Shown one piece after another: positions 5,925 to 10,167 of a stretch of 32,922 bases of DNA. The translations under genes were made by a program, and so were the position numbers. Under the pieces are notes generated by a model, which did no database searches, had not been told where the DNA came from, and was given only the letters and a program-made list of their open reading frames with translations. Positions within the stretch are counted from its first letter, which is position 1. Each line of letters starts with the position of its first letter. Location of the stretch: the NCBI GenBank assembly GCA_021738345.1, contig JAIPCE010000020.1:1-32922 (forward strand), in the 5' to 3' direction. This DNA is from Rhodoferax sp. Its GTDB lineage: Bacteria; Pseudomonadota; Gammaproteobacteria; Burkholderiales; Burkholderiaceae_C.

Positions 5925-6374
5925 TCAGGCGCTGATCTGCGCAGACTGACGCACCTCTGGCAGCAGCTCAGGGTGACGGTCAAGCAATTGGAGTAGCAAC
6001 AGCGTCGATTTGGACGGTTGGCGGATACCGCGCTCGTACTCAGAGAACGCATTGACCCCGCCGCCAAAGATAGCCGCCGCCTCGGCTTGTTTTAGCCCCA
6101 GGCGCTTGCGAGTCGCGCGAAGTTGGGCAGCTTGCGCAGTGTCAATATCGCGCATGAATGTTTGCAGGGTATCGGCCATGCGCTGCATATCGTTGTTACC
6201 CACGTCGAACCCTTCGCCGCACGTGGTGCAGTATCGCAAGGTCAGCGCGGGAATGACGGCGCTGTGGCCTTTGTAGGCAATCGACTTGTCGCGGGCTTCG
6301 GTAACGAAACCGGCCCCCGAGCCGCACGCCGGGCAGATGTGATTTGGAACTGTTGAAAAGTCGCTAGTATTCAT
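5925..6374 (-). CDS. mqsA: Antitoxin MqsA (zinc-binding N-terminus, XRE-type HTH C-terminus)
   Basis: The 149-residue protein has an N-terminal zinc site built from CPAC (near residue 14) and CTTC (near residue 49), then a C-terminal helix-turn-helix with FGGGVNAFSEYERG and LLDRHPELLPEVR. These closely follow E. coli MqsA (FGGGVNAFSRYEKG, LDKHPELL). In E. coli MqsA binds MqsR through the zinc domain and represses its own operon through the HTH. The ATG directly abuts the TAA of mqsR (TAAATG) and is preceded by GGAGAGG, the coupled arrangement usual for mqsRA. The antitoxin appears intact although its toxin gene is disrupted. The gene converges with the diguanylate cyclase gene, 34 bp apart. 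Confidence 0.94.
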   Translation of the reverse strand: MNTSDFSTVPNHICPACGSGAGFVTEARDKSIAYKGHSAVIPALTLRYCTTCGEGFDVGNNDMQRMADTLQTFMRDIDTAQAAQLRATRKRLGLKQAEAAAIFGGGVNAFSEYERGIRQPSKSTLLLLQLLDRHPELLPEVRQSAQISA

Positions 6375-6472
6375 TTACCTCTCCTTGAACTGAATGACGA
6401 CGGCACCCGCTTGCAGTGTCAGCTTGATGTAGGCGGATTTCCCATTGGGGCATGGTGCGTGGTACACGTCCT

Positions 6473-6481
6473 GCCATACAT
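6473..6481. repeat. 9-bp target-site duplication, left copy
   Basis: GCCATACAT immediately precedes the left terminal inverted repeat and is repeated exactly after the right one at 6668-6676. In the minus-strand mqsR frame both copies encode the HVW codons, as expected of a duplicated target. Confidence 0.88.
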
Positions 6482-6667
6482 GGGTGCGACTCAAAGTGGT
6501 GTGGCAATTCGGCTTTGCCCCCTCGCCCCAGCGGGGGGAGGGCTGGGGTGAGGGGGCTGGCTCAGGTTCCAGACTTCCGTCAAGAATGCAAAACATCCAC
6601 CCCTCACCCTAACCCTCTCCCCGCTGGGGCGAGGGAATAAGATTCCACATCACTTTGAGTCGCACCC
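6482..6667. mobile_element. MITE-like non-autonomous element inserted in mqsR
   Basis: The element is 186 bp long and has no transposase gene. Its ends are 23-bp inverted repeats (6482-6504 and 6645-6667) that begin GGGTGCGACTCAAAGTG and differ at one position. Inside them lies a second inverted pair of 36 bp (6520-6555 and 6600-6635) with three mismatches, carrying the G/C-rich core CCCTCGCCCCAGCGGGG. Only 44 bp in the centre is unpaired, so the single strand could fold into a long hairpin. The 9-bp direct repeat GCCATACAT flanks it. The core resembles the dispersed CCCTCACCCYAACCC-type repeats seen in many proteobacteria. The transposase family that moved it cannot be determined here. Confidence 0.87.
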
Positions 6668-6676
6668 GCCATACAT
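6668..6676. repeat. 9-bp target-site duplication, right copy
   Basis: This is an exact copy of GCCATACAT, directly after the right terminal inverted repeat. Deleting the element plus one copy restores the mqsR reading frame and its conserved WQDVY motif. Confidence 0.88.
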
Positions 6677-6880
6677 GGTGATCGTTGGTGGTGGTCATGC
6701 TCTTGAAAAACATGGCCGTTTTGAGACTGGCAATGACGGCCAGGGATTGGTCGCTGGTCAGACCCATCAAAACACTGTTGATGCGCGCTGTCTGGGTAAA
6801 AACAGCCATGCCACCAGCTGCAACAATTGACCGAATTACAGGCAGTGGGTAATGGGCTTTGCTTTTTTCCATGCCTTTAT

Positions 6881-6899
6881 TTTAACTTTATTGGTTAAA
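6881..6899. promoter_or_regulatory. Candidate MqsA operator upstream of mqsR
   Basis: TTTAACTTTATTGGTTAAA has 6-bp inverted arms (TTTAAC/GTTAAA) around a 7-bp centre and lies 9 bp upstream of the mqsR ATG on the minus strand. In E. coli MqsA binds AACCT-type palindromes at the mqsRA promoter. The match is partial, but the position and the intact MqsA HTH make an autoregulatory operator reasonable. The surrounding A/T-rich stretch (about 6876-6945) probably also holds the mqsRA promoter. Confidence 0.4.
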
Positions 6900-7156
6900 T
6901 ATTGGGGCAAAAATAACGGAAATAGTTAAATAAGACAGATAGTCCGCCGGCTTTGTCGGGGCGAGTGCGAGTTTGACTTTGGCAGGGGTAACCAGATGGT
7001 CAAAGAACTGGGTTTGACAAGCGCCAAAACCGCCTAAATCAAACTGGATTCAGCCTGACCGCCGCTGGAATGTTGCGCAAGCAGGGTGTAAGGGCTTTTC
7101 CGCATACTCGGCGCGAGCGATGGCCCATAAGTGGCAGAATCGCCGGTCCAACGTAG

Positions 7157-7250
7157 TTCCTTCCCATGCCACAGTCGCATCCGCTTAACGGTTCAGCCGT
7201 GTCGCGGAAGGTGTTTAACCAATCTTAAGTTTCCCACAGGGAAATGGAGG
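7157..7250 (+). promoter_or_regulatory. Candidate structured sucA leader (possible sucA RNA motif)
   Basis: Two hairpins are visible. One at 7180-7208 pairs TCCGC with GCGGA and ACGG with CCGT around TTCAG. The other at 7230-7244 is TTTCCC-ACA-GGGAAA, directly before the ribosome site GGAGG (7246-7250). Upstream, CTTCC at 7160-7164 could pair with GGAGG (one G-U), or CCTTCC could pair with GGAAGG at 7206-7211, giving competing structures. A conserved cis-regulatory sucA RNA motif is known upstream of sucA in Burkholderiales. Gene identity and position fit, but I could not align the sequence to that model. Confidence 0.45.
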
Positions 7251-7260
7251 TCAGCGGAAT

Positions 7261-10167
7261 ATGAGTGAAACAACGCCCCTAGGGGCGAGCACGGCGTCGT
7301 CAGCACCCACGACAATTTACCAAGCCTACCAAAACAACACCTATCTGTTTGGTGGCAATGCGCCTTATGTCGAGGAGATGTACGAAAACTACCTCGCCAA
7401 CCCGGGCAGCGTGCCCGAATCCTGGCGCGGCTACTTCGACGCCTTGCAAAATGTTCCCGCAGTCGATGGCAGCAGCGCCAGGGATGTCGCCCATCTGCCG
7501 GTGATCAATGCTTTTGCCGAGCGTGCCAAGCAAGGTGTGAACAAGGTGGTGGTGGCCACCGGAGCCGATTCCGAGATGGGTCGCAAGCGCACCGCAGTGC
7601 AGCAATTGATTGCTGCCTACCGCAATGTGGGTGCGCGCTGGGCCGACCTCGATCCGCTCAAGCGGATCGAGCGCGACAAGATTCCCGAGCTTGAGCCCTC
7701 GTTTTACGGTTTTAACGACGCCGATCAGGAGACGGTGTTCAACACCAGCAATACCTTTTTCGGCAAAGACTCCATGAGTTTGCGCGAGCTCATGAATGCG
7801 CTGCGTGAAACCTACTGCGGCACCATCGGTGTCGAGTACATGTACACCACCAACCAGAACCAAAAGCGCTGGTGGCAGCAGCGTCTGGAGAGCATTCGCT
7901 GCAAACCCAGCTTTTCGGCGGAGAAAAAGAAGCACATTCTGGACCGGCTGACTGCAGCCGAGGGTCTGGAGCGCTTTTTGCACACCAAGTTTGTGGGTCA
8001 AAAGCGCTTTTCACTGGAGGGCGGTGACAGCTTCATTGCGGCCATGGACGAGCTGATTCAGCAGGCAGGCGCCAAAGGTGTGCAGGAAATTGTGATTGGC
8101 ATGGCACACCGTGGCCGCCTCAATGTGCTGGTCAACACCCTGGGCAAGATGCCCGGTGACCTGTTTGCCGAGTTTGACCACACCGCACCTGAAGATTTGC
8201 CCGCTGGCGACGTGAAATACCACCAGGGATTCAGCTCGGATGTCACCACGCCCGGCGGCCCGGTGCATTTGTCGCTCGCATTCAACCCTTCCCACCTGGA
8301 AATTGTGAATCCGGTGGTGGAAGGCTCGGTGCGCGCCCGCATGGACCGGCGCAATGACCCGACCGGCAACCAGGTGTTGCCGGTGCTGGTGCACGGCGAT
8401 GCCGCGTTTGGGGGCCAGGGCGTCAACCAGGAAACCCTGGCACTGGCCCAAACCCGCGGTTACACCACCGGAGGCACGGTCCACATCATCATCAACAACC
8501 AAATCGGCTTCACCACCTCAGACCCGCGTGACATGCGCTCGAGCGCGTTTTGTACCGATATCGTCAAGATGGTCGAGGCCCCGGTGCTACACGTCAATGG
8601 CGATGATCCCGAAGCGGTGGTTCTGGCCACGCAGTTGGCGCTTGAATTCCGCATGGAATTCCGCCAGGACGTGGTGGTGGACATTACCTGTTTCCGCAAG
8701 CTAGGACACAACGAGCAGGACACGCCCAGCCTGACCCAGCCCCTGATGTACAAGAAAATTGCGGTGCATCCGGGCACCCGCAAACTGTATGCTGACAAGC
8801 TGGCTGCCCAGGGCCTGGGGGACAGTCTGGGCGACGACATGGTCAAGGCCTACCGCGTCGCCATGGACCAGGGTCGACACACGGTTGACCCGGTACTGAC
8901 CAACTTCAAGAGCAAATATGCCGTCGACTGGACACCATTTTTGGGCAAAAAGTGGACCGATGCCGGCGACACCGCCATCCCATTGGTTGAGTGGAAGCGC
9001 CTGGCTGAAAAAATCAGCACCATACCGGCCACGGTGACGCCGCACCAATTGGTGCGCAAGGTCTATGACGACCGCGCGGCCATGGGACGGGGCGAGGTCA
9101 ATGTCGACTGGGGCATGGGCGAACACATGGCATTTGCCTCGCTGGTGGCCAGCGGCTACCCGGTGCGTTTGTCCGGTGAGGATTGCGGCCGTGGCACCTT
9201 TACCCACCGCCACGCCGTGATTCATGACCAAAACCGCGAAAAATGGGACGTCGGCACTTATGTGCCCTTGCAGAACGTCTCTGAAGGGCAGGCACAGTTC
9301 GTGGTCATTGACTCGATCCTGTCCGAAGAAGCGGTGCTGGGGTTTGAGTATGGCTACGCCTCCAACGACCCCAATACGCTGGTGATCTGGGAAGCCCAGT
9401 TTGGTGACTTTGCCAACGGGGCGCAGGTTGTGATCGACCAGTTCATTGCCTCGGGCGAAGTCAAGTGGGGCCGGGTCAATGGCATCACCCTGATGCTGCC
9501 GCACGGCTACGAAGGTCAGGGCCCGGAACACAGTTCGGCCCGGCTGGAGCGCTTTATGCAACTCAGCGCCGATGCCAACATGCAGGTAGTGCAACCGACG
9601 ACGGCAAGCCAGATTTTCCATGTGCTGCGTCGGCAGATGGTGCGCAAGCTGCGCAAGCCGCTGGTCATCATGACGCCCAAGTCGCTGCTGCGCGCCAAGG
9701 ATGCTGCGTCACCGCTGTCAGAGTTCACCCGGGGCGTGTTCCAGACCGTGATACCCGAAAACAGGGACCTCAAGGCCGACAAGGTCAAGCGTGTGGTGGT
9801 CTGCTCGGGCAAGGTGTATTACGACCTGGTTAAGAAACGCGAAGAGAAGGGCGCAGACGATGTGGCGCTGCTGCGTGTCGAGCAACTCTATCCGTTCCCG
9901 CACAAGGCGTTTTCCACCGAACTCAAAAAGTACCCCAACGCCGCCGAGGTGGTGTGGTGTCAGGACGAGCCACAAAACCAGGGTGCCTGGTTCTTTGTGC
10001 AGCACTACCTGCATGAAAACATGGCCGAAGGTCAACGCCTGGGTTATTCAGGTCGGGCTGCCTCTGCGTCGCCTGCGGTCGGCTATTCGCACCTGCACCA
10101 GGAGCAGCAAAAAGCGCTGGTCGAAGGCGCATTCGGAAAACTCAAGGGCTATGTCCTGACCAAATAA
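7261..10167 (+). CDS. sucA: 2-oxoglutarate dehydrogenase E1 component (SucA/OdhA)
   Basis: The 968-residue thiamine-diphosphate enzyme decarboxylates 2-oxoglutarate and transfers the succinyl group to the lipoyl arm of E2, in the TCA cycle. The N-terminal E2-binding segment is recognisable ([18 protein letters not shown], near residues 28-45). The active-site segment GMAHRGRLN is at about 280-288, and GDAAFGGQG and INNQIGFTT are the ThDP/Mg2+-binding stretches near 379-415. The C-terminal transketolase-like part includes [17 protein letters not shown]. Length is usual for the family. ATG 7261 follows GGAGG at a 10-bp spacing. It leads an operon with sucB (13-bp gap), lpdA and probably zapE. 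Its leader may be regulatory. Confidence 0.98.

What the first reader, a model, noticed from the sequence alone, without database searches (positions are those of the whole stretch)
6473..6676. MITE with 9-bp target duplication precisely interrupts the MqsR toxin gene
Seen directly: 23-bp terminal inverted repeats, a 9-bp exact duplication (GCCATACAT), and conserved MqsR sequence on both sides. Cutting out the 186-bp element plus one duplication joins DHHVW to QDVY in frame and restores all four catalytic-type residues. Natural inactivation of a toxin with the antitoxin kept is a clean evolutionary snapshot. The element's terminal repeats may identify an undescribed MITE family of Rhodoferax-like bacteria.
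Basis: seen in the sequence. Interest (0 to 1): 0.72.

Follow-up and report, generated by a model that had tools for sequence, protein, structure and literature searches.

The report
High-copy mini-transposon inside mqsR toxin gene
A 186-base mini-transposon with no transposase gene of its own, present in dozens of copies in this bacterium's genome, sits inside a toxin gene of a toxin-antitoxin pair and likely disarms it while the antitoxin gene stays whole; it was probably moved by the enzyme of a larger, ISKra4-like transposon that has the same ends in other bacteria.

Summary
Confirmed. Window 6482-6667 is a 186-bp element with 23-bp terminal inverted repeats (22/23) and an exact 9-bp target duplication. 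It lies between two pieces of mqsR; mqsA beside it is intact. The host assembly (346 contigs) holds 87 intervals like the element, some partial. Of 60 paired copies with both flanks, 19 have an exact 9-bp duplication and 36 are within 2 mismatches; random re-pairing gives 0.1 on average. The seven MqsR homologs that align over their whole length run through the site without the segment. The two mqsR pieces were compared separately and never joined. A likely parent is identified: three 1.41-1.43-kb insertion sequences in other MAGs have the same ends, 8-9 bp of matching duplication and an ISKra4-type transposase in two frames overlapping at A8, as described for the ISMich2 group. No such transposase was found in this assembly. 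Beyond the finding: members of the two element subfamilies also abut a second mqsR-like tail, a decayed parE and a split RelE/ParE-like gene; no antitoxin gene was seen interrupted by an element. This fits toxin-first decay of toxin-antitoxin modules, but selection is not shown. A new MITE family of a known kind in a known role, with unusually repeated hits on toxin genes.

The parts
6482..6667 (.). MITE, 186 bp, no transposase gene
   Evidence: this copy is 6.5% from the class consensus of 38 aligned copies, one of which (L189) belongs to the other subfamily
6482..6504 (+). left terminal inverted repeat, 23 bp
   Evidence: 20-21 of 23 to the ends of three full-length ISs
6645..6667 (-). right terminal inverted repeat, 23 bp
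   Evidence: 21-22 of 23 to the same ends
6473..6481 (+). target-site duplication copy 1, GCCATACAT
6668..6676 (+). target-site duplication copy 2, GCCATACAT
6520..6555 (+). inner G+C-rich inverted repeat, arm 1 (36 nt, 92% complementary to arm 2)
   Evidence: the whole element folds at -133.4 kcal/mol, z -13.2
6600..6635 (+). inner G+C-rich inverted repeat, arm 2
6668..6872 (-). 5' piece of mqsR (68 codons; holds the Lys56 equivalent); the frame runs on for 19 codons and stops in the MITE at 6609
   Evidence: PF15723 1-64/95, E 4.7e-14
6375..6481 (-). 3' piece of mqsR (holds the Tyr81 equivalent)
   Evidence: PF15723 63-95/95, E 9.6e-11
5925..6374 (-). mqsA antitoxin gene, 149 aa, intact
   Evidence: PF15731 3-131/131, E 2.9e-39

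Best explanation
The segment is a non-autonomous mini-transposon (MITE) with 23-bp inverted ends and a 9-bp target duplication that lies inside mqsR, was likely put there by an ISKra4-family transposase acting in trans, and is predicted to leave a truncated, inactive toxin beside an intact mqsA. Shown: the ends, the duplication, the many copies, the two MqsR pieces, the intact mqsA, and full-length insertion sequences with the same ends and an ISKra4-type transposase in other MAGs. Inferred: that this transposase (split by a -1 frame change at an A8 run, as described for the ISMich2 group) recognises the shared 23-bp ends and makes a 9-bp staggered cut; that the truncated MqsR, with the Lys56 equivalent kept and the Tyr81 equivalent cut off, is dead; and that mqsA is still made. 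With an intact antitoxin left, loss of the toxin would cost little, whereas loss of the antitoxin alone would be harmful; that would explain why insertions survive in toxin genes.
For: Anatomy. Copies: 147 terminal-repeat places against 2 in the reversed control; 87 MITE-like intervals, partial ones included. The duplication peaks at exactly 9 bp: 19 of 60 exact and 36 of 60 within 2 mismatches, against a mean of 0.1 (maximum 2) within 2 mismatches in 2000 re-pairings; lengths 5-8 and 10-12 give 0-2 exact. Parent: L130:857-2281 (duplication 9/9), L106:4976-6384 (8/9) and L151:1046-2466 (9/9), each with ends alike in 22 of 23 bases and two reading frames in a -1 relation overlapping at A8. ORF2 of L130 and L106 matches NF033572 ISKra4 at 1.1e-59 and 6.1e-56. 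7 MqsR homologs aligned over their whole length, and an eighth over 6-96, lack the segment. The site lies between the equivalents of Lys56 and Tyr81, both reported as needed for cleavage in E. coli MqsR (PMC9636575, passages). E. coli mqsA has its own promoters inside mqsR (PMC6918082, passages), so mqsA could stay expressed.
Against: ORF2 alone scores 202.7 and 190.3 bits, under the NCBIfam cut-off of 205. No relative of that transposase was found in the host assembly (0 matches in G000). The one ISKra4-family gene over the cut-off there (L069) has no matching end within the locus held, the nearest hits having 4-5 mismatches, and a second, partial match (L070) has one at 5 mismatches. No sister strain with the empty mqsR site was found: 25 of 61 genomes of the genus have an mqsA match, the best relative 45% identical. 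24 of 60 paired copies show no good duplication, and duplication identity does not follow divergence from the consensus (Spearman -0.08, n 26). No promoter-like site was found in 6200-7000, so expression of mqsA is untested.
Confidence: 0.88

Rival explanations
1. The segment is an ancestral or functional 65-codon part of this MqsR lineage.
For: Element plus one duplication is 195 bp, a multiple of three.
Against: The frame stops inside the element; 7 whole-length homologs and one more distant one lack it; 86 further MITE-like intervals lie elsewhere in the host genome.
Confidence: 0.01
2. It is a REP/Correia-like palindromic repeat spread by another transposase family (IS256, ISLre2, IS1 or IS4 type) that merely converged on similar ends.
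For: G+C-rich inner palindromes; ISLre2 is the second-best family for the candidate parent's ORF2 (E 1.9e-10); the MITE shares no interior with the full-length ISs.
Against: The MITE's right end shares 21-22 and the class consensus 22-23 of 23 bases with ISs that encode an ISKra4-type transposase and have the same duplication length.
Confidence: 0.08
3. Insertions in toxin genes are under positive selection or are targeted, not merely tolerated.
For: Four toxin genes abut elements, two of them mqsR-like. Under uniform insertion P(at least 2 hits in 3 mqsR genes) is 9.5e-5 to 1.7e-4, and P(at least 4 hits in an assumed 40 toxin genes) 4.2e-5 to 1.3e-4.
Against: If purging of hits in ordinary genes is allowed for (weights 4-7), the same figures are 0.0015-0.0077 and 0.007-0.097. 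Given the hit in the window, P(at least one more in the other two mqsR genes) is 0.009-0.012 under uniform insertion and 0.036-0.083 with those weights. The choice of mqsR is post hoc, the number 40 and the weights are assumed, one of the four loci looks decayed in other ways too, one has only its 3' tail on the contig, and one lacks a target duplication.
Confidence: 0.25

Closest known systems
ISKra4 family, ISMich2 group (p-MULT 4, Mutator-like DDE transposases; PMC3942029, passages read)
   Same: Full-length relatives with the same 23-bp ends carry an ISKra4-type transposase in two ORFs with a -1 frame relation, as the paper describes for ISMich2.
   Different: The element in the window has no transposase and shares only the ends. 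Duplication lengths of the groups are not in the passages read; from recall 8 bp for ISMich2 and 9 bp for ISKra4, and here it is 9 bp.
MITEs that interrupt bacterial genes, e.g. the hupL MITE of Thiomargarita nelsonii (PMC4853749, passages read)
   Same: Short, high-copy, inverted ends, repeated target bases, interrupts a gene; parent IS not found in the same genome's ISfinder comparison there, nor in the host assembly here.
   Different: There a 10-bp direct repeat, a 19-bp inverted repeat and no clear parent family; here a 9-bp duplication, 23-bp ends and a named candidate parent.
MqsRA type II toxin-antitoxin system
   Same: Toxin gene first, antitoxin gene second, both Pfam families matched.
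   Different: The toxin gene is split by the element.

Membership tests
MITE (non-autonomous DDE element) | Short element with terminal inverted repeats and no transposase gene | tested here: met
   186 bp, TIR 22/23
MITE (non-autonomous DDE element) | Fixed-length target duplication | tested here: met
   9 bp: 19 of 60 exact, 36 of 60 within 2 mismatches, control mean 0.1
MITE (non-autonomous DDE element) | High copy number | tested here: met
   147 end places against 2; 87 intervals, partial ones included
MITE (non-autonomous DDE element) | Autonomous partner with the same ends | tested here: met
   In other genomes: L130, L106, L151; none found in the host assembly
ISKra4 family (parent IS) | Transposase matches the family profile over the curated cut-off | tested here: inconclusive
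   NF033572 E 1.1e-59 and 6.1e-56, but 202.7 and 190.3 bits against a cut-off of 205 for a part of ORF2 alone, without ORF1
ISKra4 family, ISMich2 group | Two ORFs with a -1 frame change | tested here: met
   ORF2 lies in the -1 frame of ORF1, A8 at the overlap, in 3 of 3 ISs
ISKra4 family, ISMich2 group | Place in the transposase tree beside ISMich2 | not tested
   No reference ISMich2 sequence was at hand
MqsRA toxin-antitoxin | MqsR domain and adjacent MqsA | tested here: met
   PF15723 on both pieces apart, PF15731 on mqsA
MqsRA toxin-antitoxin | Complete toxin reading frame | tested here: not met
   Stop inside the element

The most novel reading that the evidence does not exclude
A burst of one family of mini-transposons disarms type II toxin genes across this genome, again and again and leaving the antitoxins whole: transposon-driven, toxin-first decay by which a chromosome escapes its own addiction modules.
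Probability: 0.25. Interest if true: 0.62.

Novelty: new member of a known kind. Interest (0 to 1): 0.42.

Why it matters
It links a high-copy MITE family, one of several sets of elements with the same 23-bp ends in betaproteobacterial MAGs, to a transposase family for which I saw no MITE report in the listings and passages of my literature searches. It also gives a natural series of toxin genes broken at different sites by related elements, which makes the question testable whether toxin-antitoxin modules decay toxin first because the antitoxin makes toxin loss free.

Tried and rejected
ISKra4 gene of the host genome (L069) as parent: rejected, no matching ends in the locus held. The pair of ends on C34, 2.37 kb apart, as a full-length IS: rejected, it is two separate 104/105-bp copies. 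The IS3-type gene next to an end in G089 (L076) as parent: rejected; the 65-67 bases that join it to the end occur at two other places in G089 without these ends, one of them (L083) behind an IS3-like integrase gene, so an IS3-type element is nested in that copy. Ends in plasmids: 8 weak partial hits, none at 80% coverage. Ends in viral contigs: 0. Codon-usage scoring to call copies intragenic: too weak, since even the mqsR 3' side scores below typical coding. Pfam scans of flank peptides: 22 families in 70 peptides at E 1e-4 and 16 families in 112 peptides at E 1e-3; ParE_toxin was the only toxin-antitoxin toxin family listed and no antitoxin family was listed. The 70 were the best-scoring boundary frame per flank above a threshold. 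The 112 came from 212 generated peptides: the 145 best-scoring, less 33 that I left out by hand, being shorter versions of the 70 or other frames of flanks already represented; the window, L177, L031, L191 and L018 were left out of that second set. Rfam matches to microRNA families in the element are all below their gathering scores and are taken as chance on a long hairpin. The short RelE/ParE-like pieces of L191 match no Pfam or NCBIfam family, and in the PDB one piece gave only 4 unrelated hits at E 0.74 or worse and the other none; their naming rests on tblastn hits to annotated toxin genes.

Full report
Check of the observation. The minus-strand pieces on either side match the MqsR toxin profile separately: 1-64 of 95 upstream and 63-95 of 95 downstream. 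mqsA follows intact. The reading frame that enters the element stops 19 residues further on, so it is not a translated insert. The whole element can fold into one long hairpin (-133.4 kcal/mol, z -13.2).

Is it a mobile element? Searched as DNA, the host genome (G000, 346 contigs, 4.87 Mb, 90.8% complete) gave 82 match rows, counting both strands of the near-palindromic element and scoring 40 of 102 candidates. The 17-base end has 147 places with up to 2 mismatches, against 2 for the reversed control (only the first 100 places are listed). I fetched most of the listed places. Merging similarity and end matches gave 106 intervals, of which 87 have MITE similarity beyond one unrelated inner repeat: 81 of the main subfamily and 6 of a second one alone. 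Some are partial copies, several at contig ends, so the number of insertions may be lower. Of 61 paired elements, 60 have both flanks: 19 have an exact 9-bp duplication and 36 are within 2 mismatches; lengths 5-8 and 10-12 give 0-2 exact; 2000 re-pairings give a mean of 0.1 and a maximum of 2 within 2 mismatches. The main class is 185 bp. One representative each of the 105- and 93-bp classes aligns as an inner deletion of it. The second subfamily (189-322 bp) shares the ends but not the interior. The copy in the window is 6.5% from the class consensus, and its nearest copy is 98% identical.

Parent. A scan of the collection of 84,980 named species genomes for the end, with a pattern chosen to drop most copies of this MITE, gave 53 stretches. 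Four had paired ends 1.36-1.58 kb apart with 8 or 9 of 9 bases duplicated. Two of them, from a Gallionella- and a Sulfuricaulis-labelled MAG, encode an ISKra4-type transposase (NF033572 at 6.1e-56 and 1.1e-59, a little under the curated score for part of ORF2 alone). A third IS, L151, from the genome that holds L146 (labelled Proteobacteria bacterium SKS1.bin129), was found by protein search, with a 9/9 duplication. In all three, ORF2 lies in the -1 frame of ORF1 with a run of eight A at the overlap, the arrangement that PMC3942029 (passages) describes for the ISMich2 group. The MITE's right end matches these ends in 21-22 of 23 bases and its left end in 20-21. Beyond the ends nothing is shared: 0 of 93 loci from other genomes match the interior, the longest match being 29 bases at the end. 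In 15 genomes searched with ORF2, 4 had matches and the host genome had none. The KTt_bin-1310 MAG, which also carries many of these ends, has two contigs with the last part of such a transposase beside a similar end. So the parent may be lost from the host or missing from the assembly. By exact 17-mer, 3 of 299 sampled genomes of the family hold the end, the host being one.

The gene. Seven MqsR homologs in fetched loci (L158, L159, L160, L161, L162, L164 and L178, the last from the host's own contig C281) align over positions 1-98 without interruption, and a more distant one (L165) over 6-96. The insertion lies between the equivalents of Lys56 and Tyr81, which PMC9636575 (passages) reports as essential for cleavage. 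The truncated product is therefore predicted to be inactive; this was not tested. PMC6918082 (abstract and passages) reports that in E. coli mqsA has two promoters inside mqsR, so the antitoxin could still be made; a simple promoter scan found none here.

Beyond the finding. The host has four mqsA matches: the window, C281, C196, and a weak one on C93 that covers only the C-terminal part. C281 is intact with its mqsR. On C196 (L177) a copy of the MITE ends 36 bases before a stop codon; the 12 residues between read SGEYFVVSFKEL, with the VSFKEL end of intact MqsR, and an intact mqsA starts at once. The other side of that copy was not found in the assembly. On C259 (L031) a copy with an exact 9-bp duplication cuts the last codons of a parE gene (PF05016, E 1.6e-11) in a locus whose start region also looks decayed. 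On C135 (L191) an element of the second subfamily lies between two pieces whose separate tblastn hits are mostly annotated RelE/ParE toxins (3 of 4 and 3 of 3), followed by a NadS-like gene (E 5.5e-15, 55.4 bits against a cut-off of 60); it has no duplication and the middle of the gene is absent. In the scans of 70 and 112 flank peptides no antitoxin family was listed. The host has 13 ParE matches, of which 1 lies next to a fetched element, and 1 PF06296 match, away from any fetched element. Uniform insertion would make two hits in three mqsR genes improbable (about 1e-4), but allowing for purging of hits in ordinary genes raises this to 0.0015-0.0077; given the hit in the window, one more mqsR hit has P 0.009-0.083. 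The choice of gene is post hoc. I read this as toxin loss being tolerated; selection is not shown.

Literature. No paper in the searched library holds the end sequence. The joint searches ISKra4+MITE (4 listed, passages read in 1, PMC9208149), ISKra4+nonautonomous (1, passages read) and ISKra4+miniature inverted (1) showed no MITE of this family in what I saw. MITEs that interrupt genes are well known (PMC4853749, passages).

Verdict. A real MITE insertion with an exact target duplication; a new family of a known kind; the disruption of the toxin gene is clear in sequence and its effect is inferred.

Noticed in passing
L177:1-584 (G000 C196): A second MITE copy ends 36 bases before the stop of an mqsR-like tail, directly followed by an intact mqsA; the other flank was not found in the assembly.
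   Followed up: partly
L031:1-830 (G000 C259): MITE with exact 9-bp duplication in the last codons of a parE gene within a toxin-antitoxin locus that looks decayed in other ways too.
   Followed up: partly
L191:495-1301 (G000 C135): 286-bp element of a second subfamily between two pieces of a RelE/ParE-like toxin gene, no target duplication, NadS-like antitoxin gene behind it.
   Followed up: partly
L123:3014-4375 and L107:759-2342: Elements of 1362 and 1584 bp with the same ends and 9/9 and 8/9 duplications in one Burkholderiales MAG carry a 144-aa and a 206-aa ORF (by my reading secreted- and lipoprotein-like) and no recognised transposase: likely cargo-carrying non-autonomous elements. Neither ORF matches Pfam or NCBIfam.
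   Followed up: partly
L072:2525-3097: 573-bp element with these ends and the duplication GCTGTACAA in another genome of the family (G027), with a different interior.
   Followed up: no
L035:785-1077, L055:432-716, L057:649-970, L187:680-927, L189:656-844: Second MITE subfamily in the host genome: same ends, different interior.
   Followed up: partly
L018:80-271 (G000 C262): Copy whose flanks are mutual reverse complements, possibly an assembly artefact or an inverted arrangement.
   Followed up: no
window 7175-7256: SucA RNA motif (RF01070, 69.6 bits, cut-off 40) just upstream of the 968-aa ORF at 7261.
   Followed up: no
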